Below, piece after piece: positions 5,680 through 55,812 of a stretch of DNA of 56,637 bases. The position numbers were made by a program, and so were the translations under genes. How positions within the stretch are numbered: position 1 is the first letter of the stretch; each line of letters starts with the position of its first letter. Source of the DNA: Planctomycetota bacterium (lineage in GTDB: Bacteria; Planctomycetota; UBA1135; GCA-002748355); NCBI GenBank assembly GCA_026984035.1, contig JALSSW010000095.1, positions 1 to 56,637 of the forward strand, read 5' to 3'. Below the pieces are notes generated by a model. It did no database searches, had not been told where the DNA came from, and worked only from the letters and a program-made list of their open reading frames with translations.

Positions 5680-5852
5680 CTCCCATGATTCGGGGGCAGC
5701 ATCTTATGAAGGGTTCCATGCCCCTTAGATTGGAATAGACCTCTTGGAACGCGATTTTTTCGGTCTGGAAGCCCGTTGAAAAAAAGACTTCTCTTGAGGG
5801 ATCTTATGAATTATTGGGGCTGGAGCCTAGATTCTGTCGATAAGAAGGGACG

Positions 5853-6320
5853 ATGAAGCGCTTTGTCTTTCGATTGGAAAAGATACGAAAGCTTGTCTCT
5901 CGTGCAGAGAAGGCTAAGCGCCTCCAATTCGCCAAGGCTCAAGCTGAGCATGAAAGCCTTCTTCAAAATCGGAAGAGTTTGGAGAGAGCATGCAGGGAGG
6001 CGGAAACGGAGATGGCCCAGATGGGATCCAATGTGGAAATCTGGAAAGCCTACTGGGTGCATCTTCACGCCAACCTAAGAAGCTTAGGATTTCGGATCCG
6101 AAGGTCTGAAGCCCTCTTGGCGGAGATTGAAGCCGAATGGCTTGAGACCTACCGAGAGCGGAAGGGATTAGATCGTCTACGTGAAATCCGAAAAGAGACT
6201 TGGATGGATGAGCAAAACAAGTTGGAACAAAGCCAAATCGAAGAGCTTGCTTCCTTGTCAAGGGGGCAGGCGCGGCTTGAGCAGGGAAATCATGTTGTAA
6301 GAGAAGGGATGGACCAATGA
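5853..6320 (+). CDS. fliJ: Flagellar export chaperone FliJ (probable)
   Basis: FliJ is a short coiled-coil protein that sits in the centre of the FliI hexamer and recycles chaperones. The 155-aa product is almost entirely charged helix, starts with FVFRLEKIRKLVSRAEKAKR (the family normally begins with F-L-L..VR..EE) and has no globular motif. The assignment rests on this composition, the length (family ~145-150 aa) and the position after fliI. An AGAAGGGA ribosome site precedes ATG 5853. The stop overlaps the next start (ATGA). Confidence 0.75.
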   Translation: MKRFVFRLEKIRKLVSRAEKAKRLQFAKAQAEHESLLQNRKSLERACREAETEMAQMGSNVEIWKAYWVHLHANLRSLGFRIRRSEALLAEIEAEWLETYRERKGLDRLREIRKETWMDEQNKLEQSQIEELASLSRGQARLEQGNHVVREGMDQ

Positions 6321-7135
6321 AAGGCGTTGTCGCGGGTATGGGCTTGGCTACGGCGGGGGTAGCTGTATTTGGGGCATCCGTTGTGGGGCTTCTGGGTGTG
6401 GCTGGCAGATTAAATCCCGAAGGGGTCAAGTCGGTTCCTGTGCTAAATCAATTTTTGAAGCCGCCAGAACCTCCGACTTCTGATGAATTTGGACCGATCG
6501 ACGCATCTGCAACAAAGGAGAATGAGGCTAAGAAGGAAGAGGCGAAGGAGCAGAAGCAGGAAAAAAAGAAACTTCCAAAGAGAGATGTTCATGTGGTCTC
6601 AGCGGACCGAACTCGGAAAAAACGGCTTTTTTCTTTGGAGAGTTTTATTCCTCAGACCACACGAGAAGAAATCCTGGAGTTCTATCGCTCAGCGGAGGAA
6701 TTGAAGGACCAGCTCATTGCAAAAAAGGCATCGATAAAGACAAAAGAGTTTGAGCTCCAGCTTCGGGAATCCGACATCGAAGATCGTCGGGGATCGATCC
6801 GCAAGGAAATGGACAATGTGCTTCGAAAAATGGAGGAAGTGGAACGGAGGATCTCCGATCTCAAAGCTCTAAAAGCTCGGTTTGAAGCAGATATTACGAT
6901 CCTCAAGAAGAGTGAAAACAAAAACTTAAAACGCCAGGCCGTCTCCTTGGCGCTCATGAAACCTCAAAAGGCATCGGAGGTTCTTCTCGAGTTTTTGCCG
7001 GACAAAGAGGCTTTAGCTGTGAAAATCTTGGTTTCCATGGACCCCGAGGCTGCAGCAAAGATTCTGGAGATCATGGACGCTCAGCGTGGAGCCCAACTGA
7101 TCCAGCGGGCTATAAAGCTGATTCGACCTAAATAA
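6317..7135 (+). CDS. MotE-like flagellar protein with MgtE-N-type C-terminal domain
   Basis: The 272-aa product has an N-terminal membrane helix (~5-28), a Lys/Glu-rich linker (60-95), a long coiled coil (~125-200) and a C-terminal helical domain (ALMKPQKASEVLLEFLP through MDAQRGAQLIQRAI) resembling the MgtE N-terminal domain. This is the arrangement of MotE, a periplasmic chaperone of MotC reported in alphaproteobacteria, and of the magnesium-transporter-like proteins found in many flagellar operons beside fliJ and motA. Its location between fliJ and motA suggests a role in stator or export assembly. The exact role here is inferred. Confidence 0.65.
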   Translation: MKGVVAGMGLATAGVAVFGASVVGLLGVAGRLNPEGVKSVPVLNQFLKPPEPPTSDEFGPIDASATKENEAKKEEAKEQKQEKKKLPKRDVHVVSADRTRKKRLFSLESFIPQTTREEILEFYRSAEELKDQLIAKKASIKTKEFELQLRESDIEDRRGSIRKEMDNVLRKMEEVERRISDLKALKARFEADITILKKSENKNLKRQAVSLALMKPQKASEVLLEFLPDKEALAVKILVSMDPEAAAKILEIMDAQRGAQLIQRAIKLIRPK

Positions 7136-7306
7136 GATCAATCCCCGGTTTGGGCTAGGCTTCGTCAAAACCCCAATGGGATCGGGCTGTTGCAGTTTTG
7201 AACAGTAAGGCGGCCAAACTGCCGATTTTTCCCTTGTGGGATTGGGGGGCAATGGATGCTTCCCATGGGAACAGTCGCATCTTGGAACTAAGGGGGGGAA
7301 GACCGA

Positions 7307-8074
7307 ATGGATCTCGCGTCACTGATTGGCGTTCTTCTCGGCCTGGTCCTCGTTCTGGTCGCAATCATGATGGGTGGCCCCATCTCTATTTTTTGGGATT
7401 CACCCTCGGTCATGATTGTGATGGGAGGAACGATTGCCTCCATTCTGACTTGCTTCAAATTATCAGCAGTGCTTTCTGTGATGGGGGTGGTCAAGAAGGT
7501 TCTTCTCTATCCTCTTCCAACCCCAACTGAAGAGATTGAAAGAATCGTTTCCTTCTCCAATCTGGCCCGTAAGGAAGGACTCCTCGCCCTGGAAGAAAAG
7601 CTCGAGGAGCTGGATGACGAGTTCATGAAAAAAGGGCTGCGCCTGATCATTGATGGTTTCCCGGGTGCGACTGTAAGGGAAATCCTTGAAATTGATCTTA
7701 TGAATCTCATGGGCCGTCACGCTCAAGGAAAGTCCATTCTCGAAACAATGGGATCCATGGCCCCCGCTTTTGGGATGATCGGGACACTGATCGGTCTGGT
7801 TCAAATGCTCCAAAATATGTCGGATCCAAGCTCCATCGGTTCAGGTATGGCGGTCGCTCTCCTTACGACTTTTTATGGCGCTTTTACCGCAAACCTCTTT
7901 TACATCCCCTTTGCGACAAAATTGGAAAATCGATCCAAGGAAGAGGTCGCCCTCAAGGGCTTAATGGTCGAAGGGATTATTGCGATTCAGGCAGGAGATA
8001 AACCGGCTTTGGTCAAAGAGAAACTGAAGTCTTTCTTGTCACCGAGCGAAAGAAAAACGGTTGAATCGAGTTGA
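7307..8074 (+). CDS. motA: Flagellar motor stator protein MotA
   Basis: MotA is the membrane ring of the stator ion channel that drives rotation. The 255-aa product has four membrane helices: two near the N-terminus (to ~50), then a large cytoplasmic loop with conserved charged residues, then GSMAPAFGMIGTLIGLVQML and VALLTTFYGAFTANLFYIPF, both diagnostic MotA/TolQ/ExbB segments with the channel-lining Pro and Thr. The start is preceded by an AGGGGGGGA ribosome site; 171 bases separate it from the previous gene, so an internal promoter is possible. Confidence 0.95.
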   Translation: MDLASLIGVLLGLVLVLVAIMMGGPISIFWDSPSVMIVMGGTIASILTCFKLSAVLSVMGVVKKVLLYPLPTPTEEIERIVSFSNLARKEGLLALEEKLEELDDEFMKKGLRLIIDGFPGATVREILEIDLMNLMGRHAQGKSILETMGSMAPAFGMIGTLIGLVQMLQNMSDPSSIGSGMAVALLTTFYGAFTANLFYIPFATKLENRSKEEVALKGLMVEGIIAIQAGDKPALVKEKLKSFLSPSERKTVESS

Positions 8075-8099
8075 ATAGGGCCGAAACCAGGAGGGCTGC

Positions 8100-8819
8100 A
8101 TGGACGTTCCTGAAGAAGATCCGCCAGAGGGCGCACCCGAATGGTTGGTGACTTTCTCGGACCTCGTTTCCCTACTGGTGACTCTTTTTATCATGATGCT
8201 TACTTTTACCACCCAGGAGACAGACACTCTCAACAAGGTGATGGACATGGTGAAGGGTGGATTTGGGATCGTGGGAAAGGAGAAAAAGAATAAGCCCGAC
8301 CTGATGGAGACGCCCACCCTTGACCATCGGGCCAACACTGGAGTTTCTCGGCCTGATCCCGAGGCCAATCCCGACCTCGAGAACCAGATTCGGAAATTAG
8401 ATGGTTTTGTTATTTCCGATAAGGCTCTGGATGCGGGGGTAAGGATTGTCCCAACTACGATCAGCTGTTTTGCCCCAGGAGATGATCGTCTTTCGGCCAG
8501 CTTTGAGGAGGAAGTTCGCAAACTTGGGCGTAGGTTAAGGTTGCATAGAGGCCGGAGGTTTATGATTGAAGGGCATTGTGATGCTCTTTCCGACAAGGGC
8601 TCTCGTTTGGGGGGCTTTGATTCCCTGGCTCTTGCTAGGGCGAGGCGCGTGGCCCGAATCTTAGGGCTCGAAGGAGTCCAATTGGAAATGGTGACGATCC
8701 GTTCCGAAGGTGCCCGTCATCCCAGGACCCGCGGGATCGGAGATGAAGAGCAGTCACAAAACCGGAGGGTTGAGATCTTGGTCCTTCCTAAGAGTGGGAA
8801 CAAAAAGGAAGGGCGTTGA
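8100..8819 (+). CDS. motB: Flagellar motor stator protein MotB (first copy)
   Basis: MotB anchors the stator to peptidoglycan and carries the ion-binding aspartate. The 239-aa product opens with EWLVTFSDLVSLLVTLFIMM; Asp21 in the F-S-D motif at the head of the single membrane helix is the expected ion-binding residue. A periplasmic OmpA-like peptidoglycan-binding domain follows (FMIEGHCDALSDKG, LARARRVARIL). The gene directly follows motA and overlaps a second motB-like gene by one base, so two different B subunits are made with one A subunit. Confidence 0.92.
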   Translation: MDVPEEDPPEGAPEWLVTFSDLVSLLVTLFIMMLTFTTQETDTLNKVMDMVKGGFGIVGKEKKNKPDLMETPTLDHRANTGVSRPDPEANPDLENQIRKLDGFVISDKALDAGVRIVPTTISCFAPGDDRLSASFEEEVRKLGRRLRLHRGRRFMIEGHCDALSDKGSRLGGFDSLALARARRVARILGLEGVQLEMVTIRSEGARHPRTRGIGDEEQSQNRRVEILVLPKSGNKKEGR

Positions 8820-9487
8820 TGGCTGTCGAGGTTAAAGAGGAAAAGAAGGCAGGGGTTCCCGCCTATATGGCGACCTTCGCAGACTTGATGACTCTGCTTT
8901 TAGTGTTCTTCATTTTGCTCAATGTATATGCCCAACAACAGCAGGCCGGTCTTCTTGAGGCAATGCGAGGTTCGATGGCAAATGCAATTTATTCGACCGT
9001 GGGGCTTGGGGGGTTATTGGATGGATCCGAATACATAAGCAAGAACAATGCGCCAAGGCCTCATTATGTGAAGCAGGATAAGACCCCGGGAGAGTTGTCC
9101 GAGGAGGAGAGGACTGGGGATGAGGTGGAGCTCCATCAAAGTAAAAGTGAGAAACTCGAGGCTACCGAAGAAATTGAGATGACGGCCCCCTTTGTCTTTG
9201 CCCATCACTCTGCCGAGATTCCACAGGAGGGACTTGCGTATTTGGATGAACTGGCAAGGAGCCTGAATGGGGGGGACTTTACTGTCGAATTTCGCACTTA
9301 TGCCAGTTTTATCGAAAGCATGACTCCCTTAGATCTCGCGTCCCAACGCTGTCAAAACATCTTACAATTTCTTAGGGAGGTCGGCTGCAATGCCGAATTA
9401 CGTCCCTCTGCCGGTGTTTTGAGGGCAAACAGATCCAAGAATGGAGCCTGGAGGACGGTTTCGATCCGGGTTGTGCGCAAACGTTGA
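8819..9487 (+). CDS. Second MotB-like stator subunit
   Basis: This 222-aa protein repeats the MotB plan: a short lysine-rich N-terminus, the plug-helix motif YMATFADLMTLLLVFF with the ion-binding Asp22, an acidic Glu-rich linker (~80-115) and an OmpA-like C-terminal domain that is shorter and more divergent than in the first copy. I start it at ATG 8819, which overlaps the motB stop as TGATG; an in-frame TTG three bases earlier is less likely. Sequence similarity to the first copy is confined mainly to the membrane motif, so this is an old paralogue rather than a recent duplication. It could form mixed B dimers or a second stator type. Confidence 0.85.
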   Translation: MAVEVKEEKKAGVPAYMATFADLMTLLLVFFILLNVYAQQQQAGLLEAMRGSMANAIYSTVGLGGLLDGSEYISKNNAPRPHYVKQDKTPGELSEEERTGDEVELHQSKSEKLEATEEIEMTAPFVFAHHSAEIPQEGLAYLDELARSLNGGDFTVEFRTYASFIESMTPLDLASQRCQNILQFLREVGCNAELRPSAGVLRANRSKNGAWRTVSIRVVRKR

Positions 9488-9534
9488 GAGGAGGGCCATC
9501 GGTGGGAATCCCATGCAAGTCATGAGGCCAAAGT

Positions 9535-9542
9535 GCCGATAA
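9535..9542 (+). promoter_or_regulatory. Second GCCGATAA box, upstream of fliL
   Basis: The bases GCCGATAAC recur here 60 bases before fliL, matching the box upstream of flgB. No convincing TAAA-type -35 lies 15 bases upstream. It may be a sigma-28 -10 box, another shared site, or chance. Confidence 0.2.
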
Positions 9543-9594
9543 CAAAGGGAAGTGCGAGTTTTTACTGCTTGTCCAGAAGTGAAGGGAAGGTCCG

Positions 9595-10092
9595 ATGGCG
9601 GATGAGAAGGAAAAGAAAGATGAACAAGAGGGCGGTCGTAAGTCCAAATTGCTTCCGATATTTCTTGGGATGATACTTGTGGTTGGTGGGGCCGTGGGGG
9701 TTGTTGCCATGACCGCTCCTCAGAAGCCCAAGGAAGAAAAGAAAGAAGTCGACTTGGACAGCTTTCCCCCAAAAGTTTGGCCTGAAAAGCTCTCCTGGAC
9801 ATTTAATCCGGGAACTCGGCGTAATGTCGCAAAGATTGGGATCTCCTTTGAATACAAAGCTGAGGACGACATCAAGACTCAAGGGGTGATTGTGGAAGCC
9901 CTTCCCAAGGCGCGCAGTCGGATTCAAATACTTCTGCTGGGAAAAAGTGTGGATGAGCTCACGGGGGGAGACAATGCTCTGCAGCTGAAATTGGAAATGA
10001 GGGACATCTTAAATGAAACCTTCTTTCCCAATTCGGAGGAGGCCCATGCCAAGGTCTCGGATGTCTATTTCGACGAGTATTTGATCAAGTAG
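9595..10092 (+). CDS. fliL: Flagellar basal body-associated protein FliL
   Basis: FliL is a single-pass inner-membrane protein that surrounds and supports the stator. The 165-aa product has a charged cytoplasmic N-terminus, a membrane helix (~20-41, LLPIFLGMILVVGGAVGVVA), and a periplasmic stomatin-like domain ending in VSDVYFDEYLIK, close to the usual V.DVYFTEFVVQ ending of FliL. Position before fliM and fliN is the conserved arrangement. ATG 9595 follows a GAAGGGAAGG ribosome site. Confidence 0.9.
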   Translation: MADEKEKKDEQEGGRKSKLLPIFLGMILVVGGAVGVVAMTAPQKPKEEKKEVDLDSFPPKVWPEKLSWTFNPGTRRNVAKIGISFEYKAEDDIKTQGVIVEALPKARSRIQILLLGKSVDELTGGDNALQLKLEMRDILNETFFPNSEEAHAKVSDVYFDEYLIK

Positions 10093-10114
10093 GTCCTCTT
10101 ACTCGGAACATCCT

Positions 10115-11110
10115 GTGGAAGAGATTCTTTCAAATGCTGAGATCGATGCCCTTCTGGACCTCTTTCAAAATGAGGGGATGCCGGAAGAGTTGGAGGAGGC
10201 CGATGATCTTGATTTCTCTGGGGCAGAGATCCAAGGGGCTTACAAGGTCGCAGAGTTAGACCTCCTTAAACCCAACCGATTTACGCGGTCAGAACTCCAG
10301 GTTCTTACACGCATTCAAGAGATGGTCGCCCGGAAAATGGGGGCTGCGATTGCGGAACGTCTCCGTCTAGAGGCAAGCTGTGATTGCGTGGGTGTGGAGC
10401 AGCTCCGGTTTTCCAATTGGATTTCCCTTCTGGATCATCCGACCGGAACCTACATCCTTCAGATGGACCCATTAAGGTTTCCCTCGGTGCTTACGGTATC
10501 ACCTGAGTTGTTGTATGGGGCCGTTGACCGCATCCTGGGTGGGACAGGCGAAGCCCATGCTTGCCCTCAAGATCTTTCTGAAGCGGAATACGAGGTCGCG
10601 GACGCGCTTGTGCAACCATTGCTCGGCCATATTCAAGAGGGCTTGGGAGAGATGGTTGAGGTCCATCCCAAGGTGATTGGTCGGTATACAAACCCCTCAC
10701 TCGCTCAGGTTCTCCCTGCACAAGAAGTTGTCCTTGCTTTACATTTTCAGGTATCAGGCAATCCTTTGTTCGGAGATATTCGGCTCGCAATTCCTTATGC
10801 CGCGCTTGAGCCTCACCTCGGAGGATTGGAGAGCTCGCGCTTCTTGTCTGAGGGGCGAAAGGATGGGGTCTATCGCAGTGTTCTTACGGAAACGATTTCC
10901 GGCATTCCGATGGATCTCAAGGTCATCTTGGGTGAAATGGAACTGAACCTCAGAGATATTCTCGCCTTGAAAAAAGGGGATGTTTTGACGCTCACTACAA
11001 AGCCCGGAGATCTTCTGGAGATCCCAGTGCAGGGGAAAACGAAATTCCGTGGCGTTCTGGGGACGCGCGGTCGGCGCTATGCCACCAAAATCCTTCAAGT
11101 GGTGGACTAA
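10115..11110 (+). CDS. fliM: Flagellar motor switch protein FliM
   Basis: FliM forms the wall of the C-ring and binds phosphorylated CheY. The 331-aa product starts at GTG 10115 and has the N-terminal CheY-binding peptide ILSNAEIDALLDLF. The middle CheC-like domain (residues ~50-230) includes LSEAEYEVADALVQPLLGHI, and the C-terminal SpoA-like domain contains LRDILALKKGDVLTL. Full length for the family. The N-terminal peptide fixes the start even though the ribosome site is weak. Confidence 0.95.
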   Translation: MEEILSNAEIDALLDLFQNEGMPEELEEADDLDFSGAEIQGAYKVAELDLLKPNRFTRSELQVLTRIQEMVARKMGAAIAERLRLEASCDCVGVEQLRFSNWISLLDHPTGTYILQMDPLRFPSVLTVSPELLYGAVDRILGGTGEAHACPQDLSEAEYEVADALVQPLLGHIQEGLGEMVEVHPKVIGRYTNPSLAQVLPAQEVVLALHFQVSGNPLFGDIRLAIPYAALEPHLGGLESSRFLSEGRKDGVYRSVLTETISGIPMDLKVILGEMELNLRDILALKKGDVLTLTTKPGDLLEIPVQGKTKFRGVLGTRGRRYATKILQVVD

Positions 11111-11133
11111 AGAAGAAATTCTAGGTGAAGAAC

Positions 11134-11508
11134 ATGGAAGACGGAATGGAAGAGAATATGACAGATAGTGTGGAAAGTTCGGAAATCACGGCTCAAAACG
11201 TTGATTTTGGTCCTCTCGAGGGCGGTGGAGGGGAAGGTGCAGAACGTCAGAATTTGGATCTTCTCTTGGACGTTCCCATCCCCATTTCTGTAGAGGTCGG
11301 GCGAACTGAAATGAGTTTGGACCAGGTTTTGGATCTGGGCCCGGGGAGCATTCTTCCGCTCGATAAGAAGTCTGAAGAGCCTGTCGATTTACGGGTAAAC
11401 GGAAAGTTAATTGCTCGGGGAGAGGTCGTGATGGTGGATGATTGTTATGGGCTACGGATTACCCAGATTTTGGATCAAGCGGGTCGAATCGAGTCCCTTC
11501 GGAAATAA
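11134..11508 (+). CDS. fliN: Flagellar motor switch protein FliN
   Basis: FliN forms the base of the C-ring and docks FliH. The 124-aa product has an acidic, variable N-terminus and one SpoA domain: LLLDVPIPISVEVGRTEMSL, then DLGPGSILPLDK and VNGKLIARGEVVMVDDCYGL, all standard FliN. I prefer ATG 11134, five bases after AGGTGA, over the in-frame GTG 11125. It is the last gene of the operon; its stop faces the stop of the convergent gene at 11515 with only six bases between. Export-gate genes (flhA, flhB, fliP) are not in the window. Confidence 0.93.
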   Translation: MEDGMEENMTDSVESSEITAQNVDFGPLEGGGGEGAERQNLDLLLDVPIPISVEVGRTEMSLDQVLDLGPGSILPLDKKSEEPVDLRVNGKLIARGEVVMVDDCYGLRITQILDQAGRIESLRK

Positions 11509-11514
11509 ACTTTT

Positions 11515-12591
11515 TCAGCGAACTCTTTTCGCAACTTCCATGAGGTCCTTTTCCCATGCATCCACTGTTTTTTTGGGACCTACCAGCTTGAAGTAGAAAG
11601 GTCCCTTGGCCGTTTTGGTGATCCATGCGAAGATTCGGCTGCGGCCTTTGGTTTTGGCTCCGCTCATTCCCCCTCCGTAATTTCCGTCAAGACTCAATAA
11701 GATGGTCTTGTGTTTGCTTTGGTTGAGTTCTTTCTCCACCACGTTTTTTGGATCGCTGAACTGCCCTTTCCAGCGGTCGAGATTCATGCGAATGGAGCCA
11801 CTTGAAGGACCAAAGTAATAGGCGGATAAGACCCCTTCACCGGCCTTTCCTTTGATGTGGAGTTCAAGGAGGCGCATGTTGTTGGAAGGCTTGGTTTTGA
11901 TCCAGGCTTTTGGGTAGGTGATTACAAGATCCCTGACCTTTGTTTGAAGCCATCCCTTTTTTATGGGGCTTGCCGAGGTTTGCCTTACGGAGGTCGGCTT
12001 CGAACGGGCTGAGCTGGGTGAGGTGCTCGGTCTTGAGGTAGGACTTGAGGGCTTTGGAGAAACCTGTCGCTGGGGAAGTGGCTTTCCTTTGACTCGGAAG
12101 GTGAATAGCAGCCGTTTGAAACTGGGTCGCTGCTTGAGAAAGAGGGTCTCCTCCCCAGTTGCGACAAAGCGGATCAAGCCCTTGTTGGTTTGAAAAACCG
12201 CGATAAGCGCCCGATCTTGGGAGGGTTTTTCTTTTCCTGCCTGCATGTTGAATTCGATGCCCAAGAAGGTGATTCCCGTGGAGTTTCCGCCATAGTATTT
12301 GGGATTGGACTTTCGTCCGAGTCGGCCAAAGCGATCCATTAAATATTGTTGAGGGCTGAGTTTGGTTTTGAGAGGTTCCAAACTCATGGAGAGATCTTTC
12401 CCGTGTTGGCCTTGGAGAACCCAGCGGATTTTTTTGCCTTCAGGCTTTGCTCGTTTCCATGCTTTGGGGGTTTGGAACTCGAAGCCTTGAAAGGTAACCG
12501 ACTTTTCCTCGGGGGGGACCTTGGCTTCTTGGGGGGGCTGGAAGACTCCCAGAGAAAGGAGGGGCGAAAGCGAGAGAAGAATGAGTGACAT
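11515..12591 (-). CDS. Secreted two-domain protein of unknown function
   Basis: I do not recognise this 358-aa protein. It has a signal peptide (MSLILLSLSPLLSLGVF), then two domains of ~130 residues that look like diverged copies of one fold: the first begins GFEFQTPKAWKRAK, the second VRDLVITYPKAWIKTK, each starting with a beta strand and a P-K-A-W motif. A Ser/Thr/Pro-rich linker (~175-210) separates them. Such layouts occur in exported bacterial PsbP-like or lipoprotein-like proteins, but no active site is evident. It begins four bases after the stop of the upstream EIIA-type gene, so it is probably the last gene of that operon. Confidence 0.75.
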   Translation of the reverse strand: MSLILLSLSPLLSLGVFQPPQEAKVPPEEKSVTFQGFEFQTPKAWKRAKPEGKKIRWVLQGQHGKDLSMSLEPLKTKLSPQQYLMDRFGRLGRKSNPKYYGGNSTGITFLGIEFNMQAGKEKPSQDRALIAVFQTNKGLIRFVATGEETLFLKQRPSFKRLLFTFRVKGKPLPQRQVSPKPSSPTSRPSTSPSSARSKPTSVRQTSASPIKKGWLQTKVRDLVITYPKAWIKTKPSNNMRLLELHIKGKAGEGVLSAYYFGPSSGSIRMNLDRWKGQFSDPKNVVEKELNQSKHKTILLSLDGNYGGGMSGAKTKGRSRIFAWITKTAKGPFYFKLVGPKKTVDAWEKDLMEVAKRVR

Positions 12592-12595
12592 TGGT

Positions 12596-13267
12596 TTACC
12601 TTTGTGCCAGTTTTTCGTCGAGGGCTTTAGCAGCCGTGAAAAGTTCTTCGGAGGATGCGCGGTTTCTCAAGAGAGCACGAAAGCTGCTGTCCCGAACGGC
12701 GAAAGAAATCCGAGAGAGGAGCCCTAGGTGGCGTCGTACGCCGGGGCTTACGAGGGCGAAGAGAGTATCGACCGGTTGATGGTCAATGGCTGCCCAATTG
12801 ACCGGTGTTTCAAGAAAAAAGAGTCCGAGGATGGGTGTTTCCACATGAAGGACGAGGGGGGCACGCACATGGGGGATGGCGATGCCTTCACCAATTCCTG
12901 TGGATGCAAGGTCCTCTCGAGCGAGAAGGACGTGATGGAAAAAAACTCGGTCGATGGGGTCGGGTAGCACCAAGAGCTGCGAGACCTGCTCCAGGCATTC
13001 TTCTACCGTTGTGCCCGGCACCTGGTAATGAATCCCTCCTTGGGATAAAGCTTGGTGGATGCTTGGGGGGGCTGCGTCCTTTTCACCTGGGACTTCTTTG
13101 GCGAGATGGAAACTATGAGCATCGGCCCAGTCGATCAGTTCTGTTCGTTGGAACTCGGGACCCTTGCTCCCTTCCGTAAAGGGGAGACCTAAGATGTCAA
13201 TCCAGCGCCGGATCGTCCGCTCGGAGACCTGGAGAAGGTTGGCTGCTTCGGAAACGTTGAGCTTCAT
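12596..13267 (-). CDS. HTH (excisionase/MerR-type) protein fused to a PTS EIIA-like domain
   Basis: The product (223 aa) starts with a MerR/excisionase-like helix-turn-helix (MKLNVSEAANLLQVSERTIR, followed by RWIDILGLPF), and residues ~70-220 form a PTS EIIA type-2 domain of the PtsN family. The phosphoacceptor histidine lies in GEGIAIPHVR, and the VDTLFALVSP segment is also typical. PtsN-like proteins are regulatory phosphate acceptors rather than sugar transporters. I start at ATG 13267 because the longer reading frame would run into addA; addA ends 72 bases upstream. The HTH suggests DNA binding controlled by phosphorylation, which is an inference. Confidence 0.85.
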   Translation of the reverse strand: MKLNVSEAANLLQVSERTIRRWIDILGLPFTEGSKGPEFQRTELIDWADAHSFHLAKEVPGEKDAAPPSIHQALSQGGIHYQVPGTTVEECLEQVSQLLVLPDPIDRVFFHHVLLAREDLASTGIGEGIAIPHVRAPLVLHVETPILGLFFLETPVNWAAIDHQPVDTLFALVSPGVRRHLGLLSRISFAVRDSSFRALLRNRASSEELFTAAKALDEKLAQR

Positions 13268-13338
13268 GCGGGAGAGTGTCGGGCTCGGGCGACTGGCTGT
13301 CAACTCAGGCCGAAGAAATCCGAGGAGCGAGGGGCGGG

Positions 13339-16300
13339 TTATCTTTGGGGATAGCGGTAGGACAGGCTCCCTCGGAGGGCCCAAATCTCAGCATAGGGGG
13401 GGTGAGGGAGATTGAAGGCCTGCTGGATGGCCCCTTGATAGACCTTGATCTGGCCTTGATAACGGCTTGCCAAGGGGAGGATCCCTTTTTCTCCAAGAAG
13501 GTTGGTTTTGTAATCGACGACCACGAGCCCACCCTCTTCTTTCAGGAGGAGGTCGATCATTCCCCGCCAGGGTTGTCCTTGGGCGTCGAGGTGGAGAATG
13601 GGTAGCTCTTTTCCAAGGATTTCTCCGGCCTGTAGCCGCGCCTGTAACTCGGAGAGACCAAAGACCCTAAAGATTTCCTCACAGGCCTGCAAAAGCATCC
13701 TGCCCTCCCGTTCACGTCCGAGCCTGCGCCTAACCCAAGCTTGGGCGCTTTCCATGCGCTCCTTCAGTTCTCCCCTGGGAAGCTTCTGGAGGATCCAGTG
13801 ACAGAGGAATCCTAATTCCCGGGCCAAGATTCCTTGCTTTGGATCTCCTTTTTTCCCTGTCCTTTTGGCGGCCGGTTTTTCTTCCTGTTTCTCCTGTTGA
13901 CTTGGGAGCTTGAAGGAATGGCGCATGGAAGAGAATGCCTGTTTTTCGATCCGCTTCCGTTTCTGGATCCACTTCTCAACAAGGTCGAATGAGAGTTTGG
14001 ATTTCAAGTTTGTGGACCCTTCCATCTCCTCATCTCCCGAAAGGGTCTCAATGGGGACCCCGGGATCCAAGCCATCCATAATGGGGGGAATCTCGGGGCT
14101 TTGCCGAGCTTGGGGAGCATAATTCCAACTGAGCCAAAGCTCGTTGCGCGCTCGGGTCATACCGACATATTCAAGTCTCCGTTCCTCAGCTTTCTCGTGT
14201 TCTTCCTTACGCTCTTTCATCACAAGGAATTGGGGCGTGCAAAAAGGGCCGATTTTGAATGTGGATACCCATCCTTTTGTGGGGCTTTTGAAGCCGTAGA
14301 CCCCATCTTGAAACCTTGCCAAGGGCGGGGAAGAGAGGTCCGCGAGGATTGTGAGGTCAAACTCCAAACCCTTGGCCTTGTGAAGGGTCATGATGCGGAC
14401 GGCCTTAGCATTGGGATCGAAAAGGGATGCCTCGTTGAAGTCCACCGTCTGCTTGGCAAGACGAGTGAGATCGGCATAAGCGCGATGGAGGTCGCCCCCC
14501 TCTCTACGGACTTTGCCTGCGCAGTCTTCGACCAGAAGGTTCAGGTTGGCAAGGCGTTGCTTTCCACCAAAACTTGCGGCTTCTGCAACTTGTAAGCCTG
14601 AGTCCTGGAGCAGGGCCTTAAGGGCGAGATCCGCCGGGAGGCCCAAAACCCGCTCACGCAAATTACGTAAACGAAATACCGCCTCGCTCATCTGGGTTGG
14701 CAAATCCCCCAAGTTCTCCGCCTCCCGCAACAGAAGCTCCCCAAGGGGACACCCATTTTTCTCCCGGACGCCAATCGCGAACTCCTTCAATTCCGCATCG
14801 GGAACCCCTCCGATGGGGCTCCTGAGAACCGCCAGAAAAGCTGTTTCATCATGGGGTTGCACCATGAGCCCTAGCAGGGCCAGGTAGCGCTGCACCTCAA
14901 AGCGCTCATAAAACTTCTTCCCGCCTTCCCTTAGAACTGGGACACCCATGTTCTGTAACTCTTTCGAAAAGACCTCCCCCGTGTCCCCTTTCCGGACGAG
15001 AAGACCGATGCCTTTCCAAGCATCGTCGCTCCCGATTCGAGCTCGCCGTTCCAAGAGCAGGGTCCCCAGCTGTCTGGCCTCCTGGATCCGTCGTTGTGCG
15101 GCTTTTTCCCTCGGGGGACATTCCGTCCGCAAGAGGCGAATGCATGGCTCTTTCTCTGGGGCAAAAGTTCGTCCGCTGCTGAGGGCTTCATAGGGGGGTT
15201 GTATGCCTGGGGACTCGACGATTTTGTGACCAGAGATCCGATTGACGAATGCTAGGATCTCCGGTCGACTGCGGAAGTTTGCACTGAGCGTGCATTGCGA
15301 CCCTTGCGAGAGGATTTGGGCTGTGGCTGATTCGTATGCTTCCATATCAGCACCCCGGAATCGGTAGATGCTTTGCTTGGGGTCGCCCACCACGAAGAGG
15401 GAGCCCCGATGTTCCCCCACACTGAGGATGATGGCGTTTTGTGAGGGGTCGGTATCTTGGAATTCATCGACCAGGAGGAGCCGGTAGCGTTTTTGCAGGT
15501 TCTGCCGGACCTGGGTTCCTTTTGTCTCATCACAAACAAGAATCCGGCTTCGCTCAATCATCTCATCGTAGCTCAGCATTCCTGCCAGGGTGTTGTGTTC
15601 CCGGTAACGAGCCCACAGTTCCTTCAGGAGTTTTTCAAGGATGGAGAGGAGCTCCGGGGTGAGGATGGAAGAGACGGACGCCATGATTTTTTTGGCCTTT
15701 TTTCCGATTTTTTCCAAAACCTCTTTTCCCCCATATCCAGAAGGGATACCAAGGCTGGGGCCGCCTGTTTGATGGAGATAGGGTTCGATGTTCCTCCAAG
15801 CCTCGGAATCGCGGCATTTGAGGCCTTGTTGGAGCAACTCTCCCAAAGCCTTGTGGTAGCCCACAAGGACGGGTTCGAAATTTTTATTCCTTTTGGTGCA
15901 GTGCGGGCGGGCTCGCTCGATATGGCTGGCCATCTCCTCGTGCAGTGTCCGCGCTTGATCCAGCAGAGGCCCCAAGTCCTTGTCTAGAGGGAGTTCGGCC
16001 CATCGAGGATGGGACACCCAATGTTGGATGAGTTGGCGAAGGTCATCCATGCTCAGCTTCTCAAAGCAGAGATCCCACTCGGAGCTTTCAAGAATGGCTG
16101 TTCCTTTTGTGGGCTCAGCGGGACCGGTCTTTCCGAACTCGTTTTCGAGAAAGTCTTTGAAAAAGGAGTTAAAGAGATCTTCCTGGGAGATTTCGTCGAG
16201 GAGTTCTAGATCGGGGGGGAGGTCGGCCTCGCGGGCATGGTCCCGGAGGATGCTGAAACAAAAAGCGTGGATGGTCTGCATGCTTGGCAAGCCTGCTTCA

Positions 16301-50011: not shown

Positions 50012-50949
50012 CTCCAGCCATTCAAGTCACAGGTTTAGGCAAGAAGTATGGCCAGGTGCATGCCCTTCGAGGGATCTCTTTCGAGGTTGCGCAGGGAGAG
50101 TTTTTTGGTCTTCTGGGACCGAATGGTGCAGGGAAGAGCACAACCCTCAATATTTTGGCGGGCCTGACTCGGCCCAGCTCGGGGATCGCCCGGGTCATGG
50201 GCTACGATGTCGTGGGAGAATTTCGGCTGAGCCGGCGGAATCTTGGGGTGGTTCCCCAGGAGGTTTCGACGGATCGCTTGATGTCGATCAGGAAAACTCT
50301 CCAGGTTCAGGCGGGTCTTTTTGGTGTGCGCAAGGCGAGTGCTTGGATCGAAGAACTTCTCCATCGTCTTTACCTCTGGGAACATCGCGACAAGCTGGGG
50401 CACGAGCTTTCCGGAGGGATGAAACGCCGCCTCCTTGTTGCCAAAGCCCTGGTCCACAAGCCCCCGGTTGTCATTCTCGATGAACCGACCGCCGGAGTCG
50501 ATGTGGAGCTTCGGCGGGAGTTTTGGGGCTTTATCCGGGAGATTCACGCAGCAGGGACCACCATCCTGCTGACGACCCACTACCTGGACGAAGCCGAGGA
50601 TGGTTGTGAGCGCATCGGCATCTTGGGACAGGGGCGGATTCTCGCCCTCGAAAAGACCAGCGACTTGTTGAAGCGTCACAGCGATCGTGAGCTGAGGTTG
50701 CGCTTCGATCGTCCCTTACCACAGATCCCAGTGAGCCTCCGCGAGTTCGCGGCGGAGCTTTTGGAAGGGGGCCATGTCCTCGCGCTGAGAACCAAAGGCA
50801 AGGAGGATCGCGAAGCCTTTTGGCGTCGACTCGCCGACCTGGGGATCGCCCCCGTCGATGTCGAAGTCAAACGCCCCGATCTTGAAGATGTTTTCCTCGA
50901 GTTGACCCGAGGCCGGGGAGAGCAGCAAGGAAGGGAGCTTCCCGTATGA
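50008..50949 (+). CDS. ABC-2-type transporter ATP-binding protein
   Basis: The 313-aa product is a complete ABC ATPase: Walker A GLLGPNGAGKSTTLNIL (~33-49), Q-loop GVVPQEV, signature HELSGGMKRRL, Walker B PPVVILDEPTAGVD and H-loop ILLTTHYLDEAE. The C-terminal extension with DVEVKRPDLEDVFLELT is typical of CcmA/NodI/DrrA-like exporters of drugs, lipids or polysaccharides. It overlaps both neighbours; the permease follows. Confidence 0.95.
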   Translation: MTPAIQVTGLGKKYGQVHALRGISFEVAQGEFFGLLGPNGAGKSTTLNILAGLTRPSSGIARVMGYDVVGEFRLSRRNLGVVPQEVSTDRLMSIRKTLQVQAGLFGVRKASAWIEELLHRLYLWEHRDKLGHELSGGMKRRLLVAKALVHKPPVVILDEPTAGVDVELRREFWGFIREIHAAGTTILLTTHYLDEAEDGCERIGILGQGRILALEKTSDLLKRHSDRELRLRFDRPLPQIPVSLREFAAELLEGGHVLALRTKGKEDREAFWRRLADLGIAPVDVEVKRPDLEDVFLELTRGRGEQQGRELPV

Positions 50950-51752
50950 GTCCACTCTCTCCAAAGCCTAAGGATCGGGTTCTCCCACTCTTCGGTTTTC
51001 CTTTTTGGACCCTCGTCCGCCGCGAGATCATGCGTTTTATGATCGTAGTCGTACAGACCGTCGTGACCCCTTTGGTGACGGCAGGTCTCTACTTGGTCAT
51101 CTTCGTCGGAGGTCTCGGGGATCGCCTCCAGGACGTGCAAGCAGGGGTCAGCTATATGCAATACCTCGTCCCCGGACTTGCGATGATGGGCGCCATGCAG
51201 CACGCCTTCAACAACTCAGCCTCCACCATCCTGATCAGCAAATTCCAAAACAACCTGGTCGACCTATTGGTGTCTCCCCTGACGGACCTGGAGATCGCCC
51301 TCGCATACAGCGCAGCCTCCGTCACCCGAGGCGCCCTCGTCGGCATCCTGACCTGGGCCGTCACCCTCCCCTTCGGGGGGCCCATCCCTGCGCACCCCTT
51401 CCTCGCCCTCTTCATCCTCTGCATGTCCTGCCTGGGCTTTTCCCTCCTAGGAGTCACCGCAGGAGTTTTCGCAACCAAGTTCGACGACGTCGCCCGCATC
51501 TCCACCTTCATCATCCTCCCCTTCACCTACCTCGGCGCCGTCTTCATCCCCGTCTCCCGTTACCCCGACTGGATTGAACCCGCAGCCTTTTGGAACCCCC
51601 TGCTGTATTGCATCGACGGACTCCGCCTGGCCTTCCTCGGAAAGAGCGAAGTGAGCCTCATAGCCTCCCTCTCGGTCATCCTAGGATCAGTCCTCCTGAC
51701 AGCCCTCCTCTCGAGGTTCGCCTGGAAACACTCCACCTCGATTCGCACCTGA
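50946..51752 (+). CDS. ABC-2-type transporter permease
   Basis: The 268-aa product has six predicted membrane helices and the ABC-2 motifs MQYLVPGLAMMGAMQHAFNN and FIILPFTYLGAVFIPVSRYP (NodJ/YadH-like). It forms the exporter with the preceding ATPase. The protein ends normally at 51752, but the DNA immediately downstream switches to a truncated foreign hsdM gene, so the boundary of the inserted island lies within a few bases of this stop. Confidence 0.92.
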   Translation: MSPLSPKPKDRVLPLFGFPFWTLVRREIMRFMIVVVQTVVTPLVTAGLYLVIFVGGLGDRLQDVQAGVSYMQYLVPGLAMMGAMQHAFNNSASTILISKFQNNLVDLLVSPLTDLEIALAYSAASVTRGALVGILTWAVTLPFGGPIPAHPFLALFILCMSCLGFSLLGVTAGVFATKFDDVARISTFIILPFTYLGAVFIPVSRYPDWIEPAAFWNPLLYCIDGLRLAFLGKSEVSLIASLSVILGSVLLTALLSRFAWKHSTSIRT

Positions 51753-51754
51753 GT

Positions 51755-53401
51755 AGCAAAAACGATGTGCTGGGCACGCTGATCGAGAAGCTGCTCTCTC
51801 CGGACATCAACCTGAGCCCGAACCCCTTACTGAACGGCGACGGCTCGGTGAAGCAGCCCGGCCTCGACAACCACGGCATGGGCACGGTGTTCGAGGAGCT
51901 GGTCCGCCGCTTCAACGAAGAGAACAACGAGGAGGGGGGCGAGCACTGGACGCCGCGCGACGCCGTGAAGCTCATGGCCAAGCTGATCTTCTTGCCCGCC
52001 GCCGCCGAGATCGAGTCAGGCACCTACCTGCTCTATGACGGCGCCTGCGGCACGGGCTGCATGCTGACCGTCGCGGAGGAGACGCTGCAGGAACTCGCTG
52101 CAGCGGAGGGCAAGCAGGTGGCCACGCACCTCTACGGCCAGGAGATCAACGCCGAGACCTAGGCCATCTGCAAGGCCGACCTTCTGCTCAAGGGCGAGGG
52201 CGACGCGGCGGACAACATCGTCGGCGGCCCCGAGTACTCGACGCTCGACCACGACGCGTTCCCCTCGCGTGAGTTCGACTTCATGCTCTCCAATCCGCCC
52301 TATGGCAAGAGCTGGAAGAGTGACCTGGAGCGAATGGGCGGCAAGCAGGGCCTCAAGGACCCGCGCTTCTTGATCGAGCATGCGGGCGACCAGGAATATT
52401 CGCTCGTCACCCGATCGAGCGACGGCCAGATGCTCTTCCTGGCCAACATGCTCTCGAAGATGAAGCGAGGCACGCCGCTCGGCAGCCGCATCGCCGAGGT
52501 GCACAACGGGTCATCGCTCTTCACCGGCAACGCGGGCCAGGGCGAGAGCAACATCCGCCGCTGGATCATCGAGAACGACTGGCTGGAAGCGATCGTCGCC
52601 CTGCCGCTCAACATGTTCTACAACACCAGCATCGCCACCTACATCTGGGTGCTGACGAACCGCAAGCCCGAGCACCGCCGGGGCCAGGTGCAGCTCATTG
52701 ACGCGACGCAGTGGTTCAAGCCCCTGCGCAAGAACCTCGGCAAGAAGAACTGCGAACTCTCGGCCGAGGACATCCAGCGCATCTGCGACGTCTTTCTCGC
52801 CTTCGAGGAGACCGAGCAGTCGAAGATCTTCCCCAATGCTGCCTTCGGCTACTGGAAGGTCACCGTCGAGCGGCCCCTGCGCCTGGCGGGCGTCGACCCC
52901 GAGCACGCCTACAAGGCTGCCGAAATCAAGAAGCTCAAAGCGACCCACGAGCGTGCCGAGGATGCACCGCCGGTCATCAAGAAGATCCACAAGAAGGGCA
53001 CTGCCGCCGATCCGCTCCGCGGCCTGTTCGAGGCCACGATCGGCGGCAAGCCCGCGGTGGTCGAGTACGAGCGCGACCCGGACCTGCGTGACACCGAGCA
53101 GATCCCCCTGCTGGAGGAAGGCGGCATCGAGGCTTTCCTGCGTCGCGAGGTGCTGCCGCATGCCCCCGATGCCTGGTACGTCCCCGACAGCGTGAAGACC
53201 GGCTACGAGATCAGCTTCACCCGGTACTTCTACAAGCCGCAGCCGCTGCGCACTCTGGAAGAGATCCGGGCGGACATCCTGGCGCTCGAGAAGGAGACGG
53301 AGGGGCTGCTGGGCGAGATCATCGGGGGGGGGCTCCCTGACTTGTTCAAGGCTGACTTTAACAGGGCTTGGATTCGCCGCCATATTCAAGGTAGCCTTTA
53401 A
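51755..53401 (+). pseudogene. hsdM: hsdM remnant: type I DNA methyltransferase, 5'-truncated and with a nonsense codon
   Basis: One frame reads NDVLGTLIEKLLSPDINLSP, EEGGEHWTPRDAVKLM, YDGACGTGCMLTVAEETL (SAM-binding motif) and LYGQEINAET, then TAG at 52160-52162, then AICKADLLLKGEG, LSNPPYGKSW (catalytic NPPY) and on to ILALEKETEGLLGEIIGG. The N-terminal ~150 residues are missing and there is no start; the TAG stands where family members have tyrosine. The last ~20 codons after IIGG look unrelated. Codon use is much more GC-rich than in the genes to the left, a sign of transfer. Confidence 0.88.
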
Positions 53402-53442
53402 TATGGAGCTGAACCTTGTCCTTGTTATAGGCTGGCGCAGGC

Positions 53443-54672
53443 ATGGAGCGAAATGGCAACCATGTTGCAGGTATAACAACCGTGTGGGGACCACGACCCA
53501 AAGTGAGTGAAAACACTATCAGAGCAGGCAGATATATCCAGCAGCCGGAGGGCTACCGGGCGTTTATTCCGAATCCGCTGCCACCCGATCCGGCTGTGAT
53601 CATCAGCCCTGAAATTCAGGTACTGCTGTCGCAGGCGGATCGCGCTTTGGGTCGCCTGGACGGCTCCATTCAGACCTTGCCGCACCCGGATCTGTTCGTC
53701 TTCATGTATGTCCGCAAGGAAGCGGTGTTGTCGAGTCAGATCGAAGGAACCCAGAGCTCCTTGCAGGATGTTCTCGCTGCCGAAGCCCGGATTCTTACCC
53801 CCGATCGCCCCCAGGACGTTGGCGAGGTCGTGAACTATGTCAGGGCAATGAACCTCGGATTGAAACGACTGAGAGAGCTGCCGGTCTCCGTTAGGCTGAT
53901 TCGTGAGATTCATGCCGAACTGCTCCGGGGAGTTCGGGGCCAGCATCTCACTCCCGGTGAGCTCCGCACCAGTCAGAACTGGATCGGCCCGGCTGGCTGC
54001 CTCCTCAATGAAGCGACCTTTGTGCCGCCCCCGCCTCATGAGGTCACCCGGCACTTGAGCGAACTGGAACAGTTCCTGCATTCCGACACGCCGCTTCCCA
54101 TGCTCATTCGCATTGGTCTGGCCCATGCCCAATTCGAGACCATTCACCCGTTCCTGGATGGGAATGGCCGCGTCGGGCGCCTGCTGATTGCGTTCTTGCT
54201 GTGCGAACAGGAGATTCTACTCAAGCCGGTTCTGTATCTTTCGCACTACTTCAAGCAGTACCGGCAGGAGTACTACGAGCAATTGCAGTCGGTACGCGAC
54301 CGAGGAACCTGGGAAGACTGGCTAACTTTTTTTCTGCGCGGCGTGGTCGATGTCAGCAAGCAGGCGACCGAAACCGCTCGCCGCATCCTGACGCTGCGAG
54401 AAACGCATCGGGCGACGATCACGGAAAATTTCGGTAGAGCCGCAGGGAACGGGCACCGCGTGCTGGAACATCTCTACGAGCACCCCATTGTTTCCGTAAA
54501 CGAAGTCCAAAGCCTGATCCGCACCACCTATACTGCTGCCAATAGTCTGGTTGGGAAGTTTGTCAGCAGCGGCATCCTGAATGAGATCACCGGCCATTTG
54601 CGCAACCGCAAGTTCATGTACCAGCGTTATATTGATTTGTTTCGTGATGATGAAGGGAAGGCCGAGTCATGA
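53443..54672 (+). CDS. Fic-domain protein (AMPylator family) with N-terminal inhibitory motif
   Basis: Fic proteins transfer AMP or other nucleotide parts to target hydroxyls. The 409-aa product has a Fic_N domain with the inhibitory helix motif SSQIEGTQSS (S-x-x-x-E-G, ~91-100), then the Fic core with HPFLDGNGRVGRLL carrying the catalytic histidine, and a C-terminal winged-helix-like region. All key residues are present, so it seems functional. It lies between the hsdM and hsdS remnants, a known context for Fic genes, and overlaps the hsdS start by four bases. GTG near 53503 is an alternative start. Confidence 0.92.
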   Translation: MERNGNHVAGITTVWGPRPKVSENTIRAGRYIQQPEGYRAFIPNPLPPDPAVIISPEIQVLLSQADRALGRLDGSIQTLPHPDLFVFMYVRKEAVLSSQIEGTQSSLQDVLAAEARILTPDRPQDVGEVVNYVRAMNLGLKRLRELPVSVRLIREIHAELLRGVRGQHLTPGELRTSQNWIGPAGCLLNEATFVPPPPHEVTRHLSELEQFLHSDTPLPMLIRIGLAHAQFETIHPFLDGNGRVGRLLIAFLLCEQEILLKPVLYLSHYFKQYRQEYYEQLQSVRDRGTWEDWLTFFLRGVVDVSKQATETARRILTLRETHRATITENFGRAAGNGHRVLEHLYEHPIVSVNEVQSLIRTTYTAANSLVGKFVSSGILNEITGHLRNRKFMYQRYIDLFRDDEGKAES

Positions 54673-55739
54673 TTGCCGACCTGGAGCCCTATCCCGCGAT
54701 GAAGGACTCCGGCGTGCCGTGGCTGGGGGAGGTGTCGGAGCATTGGCGGGTCGATCGAGGCAAGTGGCTCTTTCCGCACAAGGAGCATGTCAACGCGGAT
54801 GGAGCAGAGACGAATGTTCTCTCGCTTACCTTGAGAGGAGTTGTCCATAACGATCCAGAAGACCCTGAGGGCTTGGTTCCTAAAGATTAAGGCACCTACC
54901 AATTGTTTCGCCGCGGAGACCTCGTCTTCAAGCTCATTGACCTGGAGAACCTACGTACAAGCAGGGTTGGCTTGGTCCACGAAGACGGAATCATGAGCTC
55001 TCCTTATGTGCAACTGGTTCCGCAGGTGGACGATCTCGTGGCGCTTTACCTGGGCGGGGCGGACCGCGACCGGCTTGACCCCATCCTCGACGCCTGCGTC
55101 GAGGATTACCGCGAGCGTCTCGACGAGGACGGGCAAGTGGACTTCAAGGGCAAGGCGAAGGCCTTCCTGCGCGCCTATGGGTTTCTGTCACAGGTCCTTC
55201 CATACAGCAAGGCCGAGTGGGAGAAGCTCTCGATCTTCCTGACCTTCCTCGTGCCGAAGCTGCCGGCTCCCGTTGAGGAGGACTTATCGAAGGGCATCCT
55301 CGAGGCGATCGACATGGACAGCTACCGGGTGGAGAAGCAGGCGGCCGTGAAGGTTCTGCTTCCGGATACCGACGCCGAGATCGAGCCGGTGACGACCACC
55401 GGCGGCGGCCACAAGCCCGAACCCGAGCACGACCGGCTCTCGAACATCCTCAAAGTCTTCAACGATCAGTTCGGCAACATCCCCTGGTCCGACGCCGATC
55501 GGGTGCACAAGCTAATCACCGAAGACATCCCTCAGCGGGTCGCAGCCGACAAGGCCTACCCGAATGCGCGCCAGAACTCGGACAAGCAGAACGCCCGCAT
55601 CGAGCACGACAAGGCACTGACGCGGGTGATGACGGCCGTGTTGAAGGATGACACGGAGCTGTTCAAGCAGTTCATGGACAATGAGGGCTTCCGGCGCTGG
55701 CTGACGGACACGGTGTTTGGGTTGACCTACGAGGCGTAA
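54669..55739 (+). pseudogene. hsdS-hsdR fusion remnant with a nonsense codon
   Basis: The frame starts as HsdS, the DNA-specificity subunit: MKDSGVPWLGEVSEHW, LTLRGVVHNDPEDPEGLVPK, then D and TAA at 54888-54890, then GTYQLFRRGDLVFKLIDLEN and IMSSPYVQLVP. Near 55030 it passes in frame into the C-terminal part of HsdR, the restriction subunit (YLGGADRDRLDPILDACVED through FRRWLTDTVFGLTYEA). Most of hsdS and the whole hsdR motor and nuclease are deleted. The TAA stands at a usual tyrosine (DYGTYQ). No restriction activity is possible. Confidence 0.88.
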
Positions 55740-55748
55740 GGGGCGGGA

Positions 55749-55812
55749 GGCCTAACAACCGATGAAGCTGAAGGTCGCCTTCGGCGCCCGCAGCTTATCG
55801 GCAGGACATTAA
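55749..55812 (+). other. Integron attC-like hairpin
   Basis: GCCTAAC at 55750-55756 fits the attC R-box pattern RYYYAAC. CCGATGAAGCTG (55759-55770) pairs with CAGCTTATCGG (55791-55801) except for one unpaired G, the extrahelical base typical of attC folds, and an inner GGTCGCC/GGCGCCC arm continues the stem. The opposite R box expected on the right (GTTRRRY) is degenerate. It lies ten bases after the hsdR end, where a cassette's attC would be. Confidence 0.45.

What the first reader, a model, noticed from the sequence alone, without database searches (positions are those of the whole stretch)
51755..55739. Dead type I restriction-modification locus around an intact Fic gene
hsdM lacks its 5' part and has a nonsense codon; hsdS is joined in frame to the end of hsdR by a deletion that removes the motor and nuclease. 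The fic gene between them keeps inhibitory motif, catalytic histidine and full length. The GC-rich codon use marks the island as foreign. Retention of fic while its neighbours decay suggests it has its own benefit or is simply newer.
Basis: partly seen in the sequence, partly recalled or inferred. Interest (0 to 1): 0.5.

Follow-up and report, generated by a model that had tools for sequence, protein, structure and literature searches.

The report
Phage-defence gene outliving broken restriction operon
A bacterial restriction operon has recently broken down around a single-gene phage-defence toxin that stayed whole, and that toxin gene proves to carry its own conserved set of likely control sites, shared with relatives in many bacterial phyla, which could let it work without the dead neighbours.

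Summary
The locus is real. Decay is recent: codon models still show strong constraint on dead hsdM, so an intact fic here, or its dN/dS, says nothing about selection (P of no stop by luck about 0.4).

Fic matches the SoFic single-gene defence family. (2) Between hsdM and fic lie 25-bp palindromes (cATATTAAAGGCwGCCTTTAATATg), mostly 40 bp apart where repeated. They occur at 47 of 51 fic genes on one side of a supported tree branch and 1 of 28 on the other, with or without hsd. More distant relatives have another palindrome, often at 31-bp steps. I infer that Fic represses its own promoter through its C-terminal winged helix, as shown in print for the Fic protein CccR, making fic a self-contained cassette. 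Binding was not tested.

The parts
50946..51752 (+). intact ABC-2 permease gene; the island starts at its stop codon
   Evidence: 94% identical to G001 (same genus); DNA similarity ends exactly at the TGA
51753..53401 (+). hsdM remnant: 5' part missing, nonsense codon at 52160-52162, homology ends near 53334
   Evidence: N6_Mtase hits on both pieces; alignment to HsdM of L031 and L045 and comparison with L152
52160..52162 (+). in-frame TAG in hsdM
53341..53365 (+). palindromic site 1 (19.5 bits)
53381..53405 (+). palindromic site 2 (30.0 bits), 40 bp after site 1
53443..54672 (+). fic: SoFic-type class II Fic with predicted C-terminal winged helix; true start may be GTG 53482 or 53503
   Evidence: PADLOC SoFic 404 bits; Pfam Fic_N and Fic; model pLDDT 89, residues 1-17 under 50; motifs; start codons
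54669..55022 (+). hsdS 5' remnant (junction with hsdR approximate), overlaps fic stop by ATGA
   Evidence: 35% identity to HsdS of L031 over 121 columns
54888..54890 (+). in-frame TAA in the hsdS remnant
55023..55739 (+). hsdR 3' remnant fused in frame to hsdS (junction approximate)
   Evidence: matches HsdR of L031 from ~970 to its C-terminal end

Best explanation
A hsdM-fic-hsdS-hsdR operon, probably gained by horizontal transfer, has recently been inactivated; fic is still whole. Fic is a SoFic-type class II AMPylase, held back by its own S-x-x-x-E-G helix and thought to cause abortive infection. It is an autonomous cassette set into a variable slot after hsdM. Upstream it carries 25-bp palindromes, one or more, in tandem at 40-bp steps, on which Fic dimers, through the C-terminal winged helix, probably bind and repress the fic promoter. 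Because silencing (own helix) and expression control (own operators) are both built into fic, loss of hsdM, hsdS and hsdR neither frees nor silences it. Shown by computation: dead hsd, intact SoFic-type gene, conserved palindromes. Inferred: transfer, binding by Fic, repression, present-day defence activity.
For: SoFic: PADLOC 404 bits; fold matches SoFic 3eqx, 3zcn and 3zec, query-normalised TM 0.72-0.75; helix-strand order of a winged helix at 331-392 (my reading). Palindromes: with seeds taken from training halves only, held-out hits 24/40 and 26/39 at a 1% shuffle threshold, against 1/38 and 0/37 downstream of fic. With a model trained on all loci: 37 of 40 spacings between sites of 12 bits or more are 39-41 bp, in the 24 of 53 loci that have two or more such sites; sites of 14 bits or more at 47 of 51 tree rows on one side of a supported branch (plus both unplaced rows L040 and L055) against 1 of 28 on the other; at 13/14 hsd-linked, 6/6 remnant and 31/61 unlinked fic. 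More distant relatives: palindrome TTTAcTAGcgagactcgCTAgTAAA, blind held-out hits 18/36 and 24/36, 21 of 31 spacings exactly 31 bp. Among ORFs of 60 aa or more within 3 kb, no family other than fic is shared by more than 17 of the 50 site-bearing loci. Precedent: CccR, a Fic protein, binds inverted repeats in its own promoter through its HTH domain and represses it (PMC9755527). Recurrence: hsd reduced to remnants at 6 of 20 fic loci with hsd traces; the label needs 4 changes on the fic tree, at least 3 by starred branches.
Against: No binding or expression data. Protein-operator covariation was inconclusive: the C-terminal domain is no better associated with operator letters than the rest of Fic. 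A regulator shorter than 60 aa or outside 3 kb was not looked for. Fic scores 157 bits, below the NCBIfam SoFic equivalog cut-off of 550. CccR's operator differs in architecture (10-bp repeats 26 bp apart). At 12 bits 4 of 28 of the other clade have a site. The three viral-contig relatives nearest to the query (L190-L192, 55-61% identical) have no site of 12 bits or more.
Confidence: 0.68

Rival explanations
1. fic is whole only because too little time has passed since the operon died; nothing retains it.
For: Neutral time on the hsdM branch at most about 0.03-0.075 substitutions per codon; P(no stop in fic by luck)=0.39; with five disabling events (my count) shared by length, 0.15.
Against: WIN, L025 and L085 form a supported clade in which hsdM is reduced to three different remnants while fic stays open as far as it is held (L085 is cut at 271 aa); L033, L037 and L041 do the same elsewhere on the tree.
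Confidence: 0.35
2. The palindromes are read by a host regulator or an unlinked or very small repressor, not by Fic.
For: Binding was not tested; covariation inconclusive; ORFs under 60 aa were not compared. RptR shows that dedicated repressors of type I loci exist (PMC12255303, abstract and passages).
Against: Sites follow one side of the fic tree across 12 named phyla; no neighbour family of 60 aa or more reaches beyond 17 of 50 loci; RptR's site is TAGCTA, a different motif.
Confidence: 0.18
3. The array is an RNA element (type III toxin-antitoxin-like repeats), not DNA operators.
For: Tandem repeats of about 40 bp upstream of a toxin gene; slight excess of paired halves over shuffled halves (64.5% against 57.9%, z 6.5).
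Against: About 35% of the pairs are broken, so no stem is kept; Rfam finds nothing in window 53200-53600 up to E=1.
Confidence: 0.04
4. fic was a guard toxin silenced by the restriction complex, like PrrC (recalled).
For: fic lies inside hsd operons, with an ATGA overlap to hsdS here and in L031.
Against: Catalytic and inhibitory motifs stay intact where hsd is reduced to remnants; 61 of 81 fic loci have no hsd match in the DNA held (up to 8 kb per side, often less).
Confidence: 0.03
5. The junction at 51752/51753 is an assembly or binning chimera at a contig end.
For: The contig ends 0.9 kb after the locus; blastn finds no match past 51752 in the G001 stretch beyond short chance pieces; the genome is in 210 contigs, 90% complete with 2.6% contamination.
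Against: The lesions lie inside the island and do not depend on the junction; 55760-55811 is 92% identical to a G001 stretch.
Confidence: 0.1

Closest known systems
SoFic/SoFIC (PADLOC PDLC03963; Shewanella SO_4266; E. coli H397 Sofic)
   Same: Fic_N+Fic domains, N-terminal inhibitory motif, C-terminal winged helix, single gene
   Different: 24-25% identical to the solved SoFic chains 3eqx, 3zcn, 3zec; below the NCBIfam equivalog cut-off; the next gene is an overlapping hsdS, whereas E. coli Sofic has the small gene AS1 downstream; palindromes upstream are not mentioned in the sections and passages of PMC12249575 that I read
CccR of Yersinia pseudotuberculosis (PMC9755527)
   Same: Fic toxin with C-terminal HTH and inverted repeats in its own promoter, autorepressed
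   Different: secreted effector; operator is 10-bp repeats 26 bp apart, not tandem 25-bp palindromes
Type I operons with embedded defence genes (TgvAB, PMC11411939; DarTG2 with RptR, PMC12255303)
   Same: defence cargo inside the hsd operon; in the RptR case a dedicated repressor with repeated short palindromes
   Different: cargo here is SoFic, and the hsd host is dead

Membership tests
SoFic defence family (PADLOC) | match to the SoFic model | tested here: met
   404 bits, 37-401 against 5-359/361
SoFic defence family (PADLOC) | class II inhibitory motif and catalytic HPFxDGNGRxxR | tested here: met
   SSQIEG, HPFLDGNGRVGR
SoFic defence family (PADLOC) | C-terminal winged-helix domain | tested here: met
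   predicted structure, block pLDDT 84-98 over 331-400; match to 3eqx
SoFic defence family (PADLOC) | AMPylation-dependent phage defence | not testable with these tools
   needs plaque assay
NCBIfam NF046030 ProtAdlyltaseSoFic equivalog | score over the curated cut-off of 550 bits | tested here: not met
   157 bits: not filed under this narrower model
Functional type I restriction-modification system | full-length HsdM, HsdS, HsdR | tested here: not met
Autoregulated Fic toxin (CccR-like) | inverted repeats upstream of the gene | tested here: met
Autoregulated Fic toxin (CccR-like) | Fic binds them and represses | not testable with these tools
   needs EMSA and reporter
Type III toxin-antitoxin | repeats forming RNA structure | tested here: not met
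   about 35% of pairs broken; no Rfam match

The most novel reading that the evidence does not exclude
The palindrome array is more than autorepression: SoFic dimers parked in phased rows on their own promoter are the inactive store of the toxin, and loss of that DNA (phage attack on the chromosome, or competition from incoming DNA) both de-represses the gene and frees or activates the enzyme. DNA binding would then be the missing infection sensor of SoFic defence, with group-specific operators and spacings (40 bp and 31 bp) as its code. A section heading of PMC10628234 (seen in passages) reports that DNA binding stimulates another Fic enzyme.
Probability: 0.15. Interest if true: 0.82.

Novelty: new variant of a known kind. 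Interest (0 to 1): 0.55.

Why it matters
SoFic is among the most prevalent defence families in two surveys of environmental genomes (PMC10924106 and PMC12259885, passages), yet its activation during infection is called elusive (PMC12249575). Conserved palindrome arrays give a concrete and cheap test: does SoFic repress itself, and does infection lift it? They would also explain how a toxin gene can sit in, and outlive, a restriction operon. The dead locus is a natural knock-out suggesting that SoFic does not need the restriction complex to stay harmless.

Tried and rejected
Internal hsdM deletion: inferred from L031, rejected after L152, L154 and L155. dN/dS as a test of fic retention: uninformative; with a distant outgroup (L026) branch lengths saturated and omega=1 on the window branch was not rejected (2dlnL 2.38). 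Covariation of Fic residues with operator letters: inconclusive. Coding-region control for the motif search: not a fair control, because it finds conserved codons (38/40 and 35/39). The first cross-validation (25/40, 22/39) used seeds I had typed after looking at the loci; it was repeated with blind seeds. Site counts by clade and by hsd linkage use a model trained on all loci, so they are not blind. Integron: an attC-like hairpin after hsdR, but no integrase over the cut-off in 7 genomes. Same locus in the nearest relatives: no hsdM match at E 1e-100 in G001 or G003 (G002 has one, 45% identical), no fic match better than 3.6e-19 in G001 and none at 0.001 in G003, so no strain comparison was possible. 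Rows dropped: L040 and L055 (stop inside fic) before the tree; loci with cut or broken fic before the covariation test (46 of 50 site-bearing loci used). HsdM-first sample: I fetched 40 of the 57 listed non-window matches; fic was sought there only with a profile built from L031's fic. Pfam was run on 10 slot proteins only.
Full report
What is there. The window is a whole contig (C95, 56,637 bp) of a genome of 3.81 Mb in 210 contigs, 90% complete, by its look a MAG. The locus lies 0.9 kb from the contig end. Upstream is an ABC permease, 94% identical in a genome of the same genus; DNA similarity stops exactly at its TGA, and the sequence that follows in that relative is different. G001 and G003 have no hsdM match at E 1e-100; G002, of the same family, has one at 45% identity. 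The window fic is the only fic match at E 0.001 in its genome. Other type I genes exist there: HsdM, HsdS and the start of HsdR at a contig end on C24, and HsdM and HsdS on C44.

Lesions. Against the Rhodanobacter locus L031 (hsdM 5489-7879, fic 7992-9197, hsdS 9194-10585, hsdR 10582-14205), the window hsdM lacks about 153 residues and has a TAG; the rest aligns at 80% over 377 columns and 67% over 131. The hsdS piece (35% identity) has a TAA and runs in frame into HsdR from residue ~970 to its end. Relatives L152, L154 and L155 share the short form of hsdM.

How old is the decay? In codon models the window branch of hsdM has omega 0.05 (with L152, L155) or 0.04 (with L152, L154), and omega=1 is rejected (2dlnL 19.7 and 46.7). 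The neutral part of that branch is at most about 0.03-0.075 substitutions per codon at two log-likelihood units. Two stops in 2645 nt of dead frames predict 0.93 in fic, so fic would be stop-free by luck with P=0.39. For fic itself (WIN, L025, L085; 255 codons) omega is 0.03 on the window branch and 0.09 on the others (2dlnL 6.95; omega=1 rejected, 71.8), but dead hsdM is constrained about as strongly. So retention in this window alone proves nothing.

What the fic is. Pfam finds Fic_N and Fic; PADLOC SoFic 404 bits; NCBIfam SoFic equivalog 157 bits against a cut-off of 550. AlphaFold2 on 40 aligned rows gives pLDDT 89, a C-terminal helix-strand order that I read as a winged helix (331-392) and disordered residues 1-17, suggesting a start further in (GTG 53482 or 53503). 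The best folds are a mycobacterial Fic and SoFic. SoFic is reported as a single-protein, class 2 Fic defence system thought to act by abortive infection (PMC12249575; introduction, results and discussion read).

The slot. I took 40 loci found by HsdM, not by fic. With a profile from L031's fic, 2 of them have a fic inside the operon (L166, L184). Ten proteins lying between hsdM and the next hsd gene, from ten loci, were typed: Mrr, three GmrSD, RhuM, a helicase, two YhcG nucleases, DUF488 and the L166 Fic. So this place is a cargo slot, as in print for TgvAB and DarTG2 (PMC11411939, passages; PMC12255303, abstract and passages). Synechocystis pSYSX also has a related fic (58% identical) beside hsdS, in opposite orientation.

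Recurrent survival. In six the hsd genes are remnants: window, L025, L085, L033, L037, L041. L033's remnant is about 2.2 kb from fic, and L041's is an hsdR end about 3.7 kb downstream. L035 and L057 have hsdM in several pieces and were counted as hsd-linked. On the fic tree the remnant label needs 4 changes (at least 3 by starred branches); WIN, L025 and L085 form a clade (100/97) with three different hsdM remnants. No stop lies inside fic in 79 of 81 (L040 and L055 have one; L034, L085 and L102 are cut by contig ends). This sample is biased to whole fic genes.

The palindromes. While comparing the hsdM-fic gap I saw repeated palindromes. A symmetric 25-bp model learnt blind from half the loci is found in 24/40 and 26/39 of the held-out loci at a threshold passed by 1% of shuffles, against 1/38 and 0/37 for DNA downstream of fic. 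Consensus cATATTAAAGGCwGCCTTTAATATg. With a model trained on all loci there are 93 sites of 12 bits or more in 53 loci; 24 of the 53 have two or more, and 37 of 40 neighbouring spacings are 39-41 bp. L032 has eight sites at 9 bits or more. In the flanks of these loci, away from fic, none above 14 bits occurs in 1.75 million positions. In the HsdM-first set 6 sites above 13 bits occur in 543 kb, the best 17.8 and 17.6, both in genome G181; I take these for chance. Sites of 14 bits or more are at 47 of 51 tree rows on one side of a branch supported 100/99, plus the two unplaced rows L040 and L055, and at 1 of 28 on the other side (4 of 28 at 12 bits); at 13/14 hsd-linked, 6/6 remnant and 31/61 unlinked loci; in 12 named phyla plus one doubtful case, L088. 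In this genome only the two sites at fic match a consensus pattern within 3 mismatches; the backwards control pattern matched once. In 98 further loci (viral contigs, plasmids, relatives) 6 have a site of 14 bits or more; of these L006 and the plasmid locus L270, both about 65% identical to the window fic, are near kin; the viral loci L190-L192 (55-61%) have none. The more distant ones carry another palindrome, TTTAcTAGcgagactcgCTAgTAAA: learnt blind from half, held-out 18/36 and 24/36, and 21 of 31 spacings exactly 31 bp (72 loci after removing near-copies of 92; these were not placed on a tree or scanned with PADLOC).

What reads them. Halves of a site are complementary at 64.5% of positions against 57.9% for shuffled halves: too broken for an RNA stem, as expected for two half-sites read by one dimer. 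Among ORFs of 60 aa or more within 3 kb, no family besides fic reaches beyond 17 of the 50 site-bearing loci, and that one follows the hsd-linked loci; shorter proteins were not compared. CccR, a Fic protein with a C-terminal HTH, binds inverted repeats in its promoter and represses itself (PMC9755527; passages and the first part of the section on regulation read). A sigma-70-like promoter overlaps the sites at 53358-53386 (9 of 12 matches; 0.1 expected). A covariation test was inconclusive.

Novelty in print. Searches for Fic protein with palindrome and autoregulation (3 papers, all listed), SoFic with promoter (20 of 167 listed), Fic family with operator terms (12 of 21 listed) and SoFic with transcription or DNA binding (15 of 82 listed) gave CccR and a Coxiella Fic, and no description of SoFic operators in the titles, abstract starts and passages I saw. 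Only open-licence papers are held and the listings were partial, so this is not proof.

Changes made on checking. The clade count is now given by tree rows, the second palindrome is ascribed to 'more distant relatives' rather than to one subfamily, and the limit to ORFs of 60 aa or more is stated; the confidence of the best explanation went from 0.70 to 0.68 and the other-regulator rival from 0.17 to 0.18 for that last reason.

Noticed in passing
window 55750-55812: Just after the hsdR stop: an attC-like imperfect hairpin (GCCTAAC box recognised by eye, fold z -3.6 on the bottom strand); 55760-55811 is 92% identical to G001:C21, where a DUF433/DUF5615-like gene pair (recognised by eye) follows. 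No integron integrase over the cut-off in 7 genomes. Possibly a cassette end.
   Followed up: partly
L190-L269 (viral contigs): Predicted viral contigs carry SoFic-like genes; many of the distant ones have a different palindrome (TTTACTAGC...GCTAGTAAA) at 31-bp steps.
   Followed up: partly
L166 11006-11581, between hsdM and hsdS: A different Fic (Pfam Fic and Fic-like_C) sits in the same slot of another type I operon.
   Followed up: no
L032, upstream of fic (positions -332 to -53 from a conserved fic codon): Eight tandem palindromes at 39-40-bp steps (9 bits or more), the longest array seen.
   Followed up: no
G000 C44 (L115): A second hsdM with hsdS; the profile matches hsdM in several pieces, so it may be broken too.
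   Followed up: no
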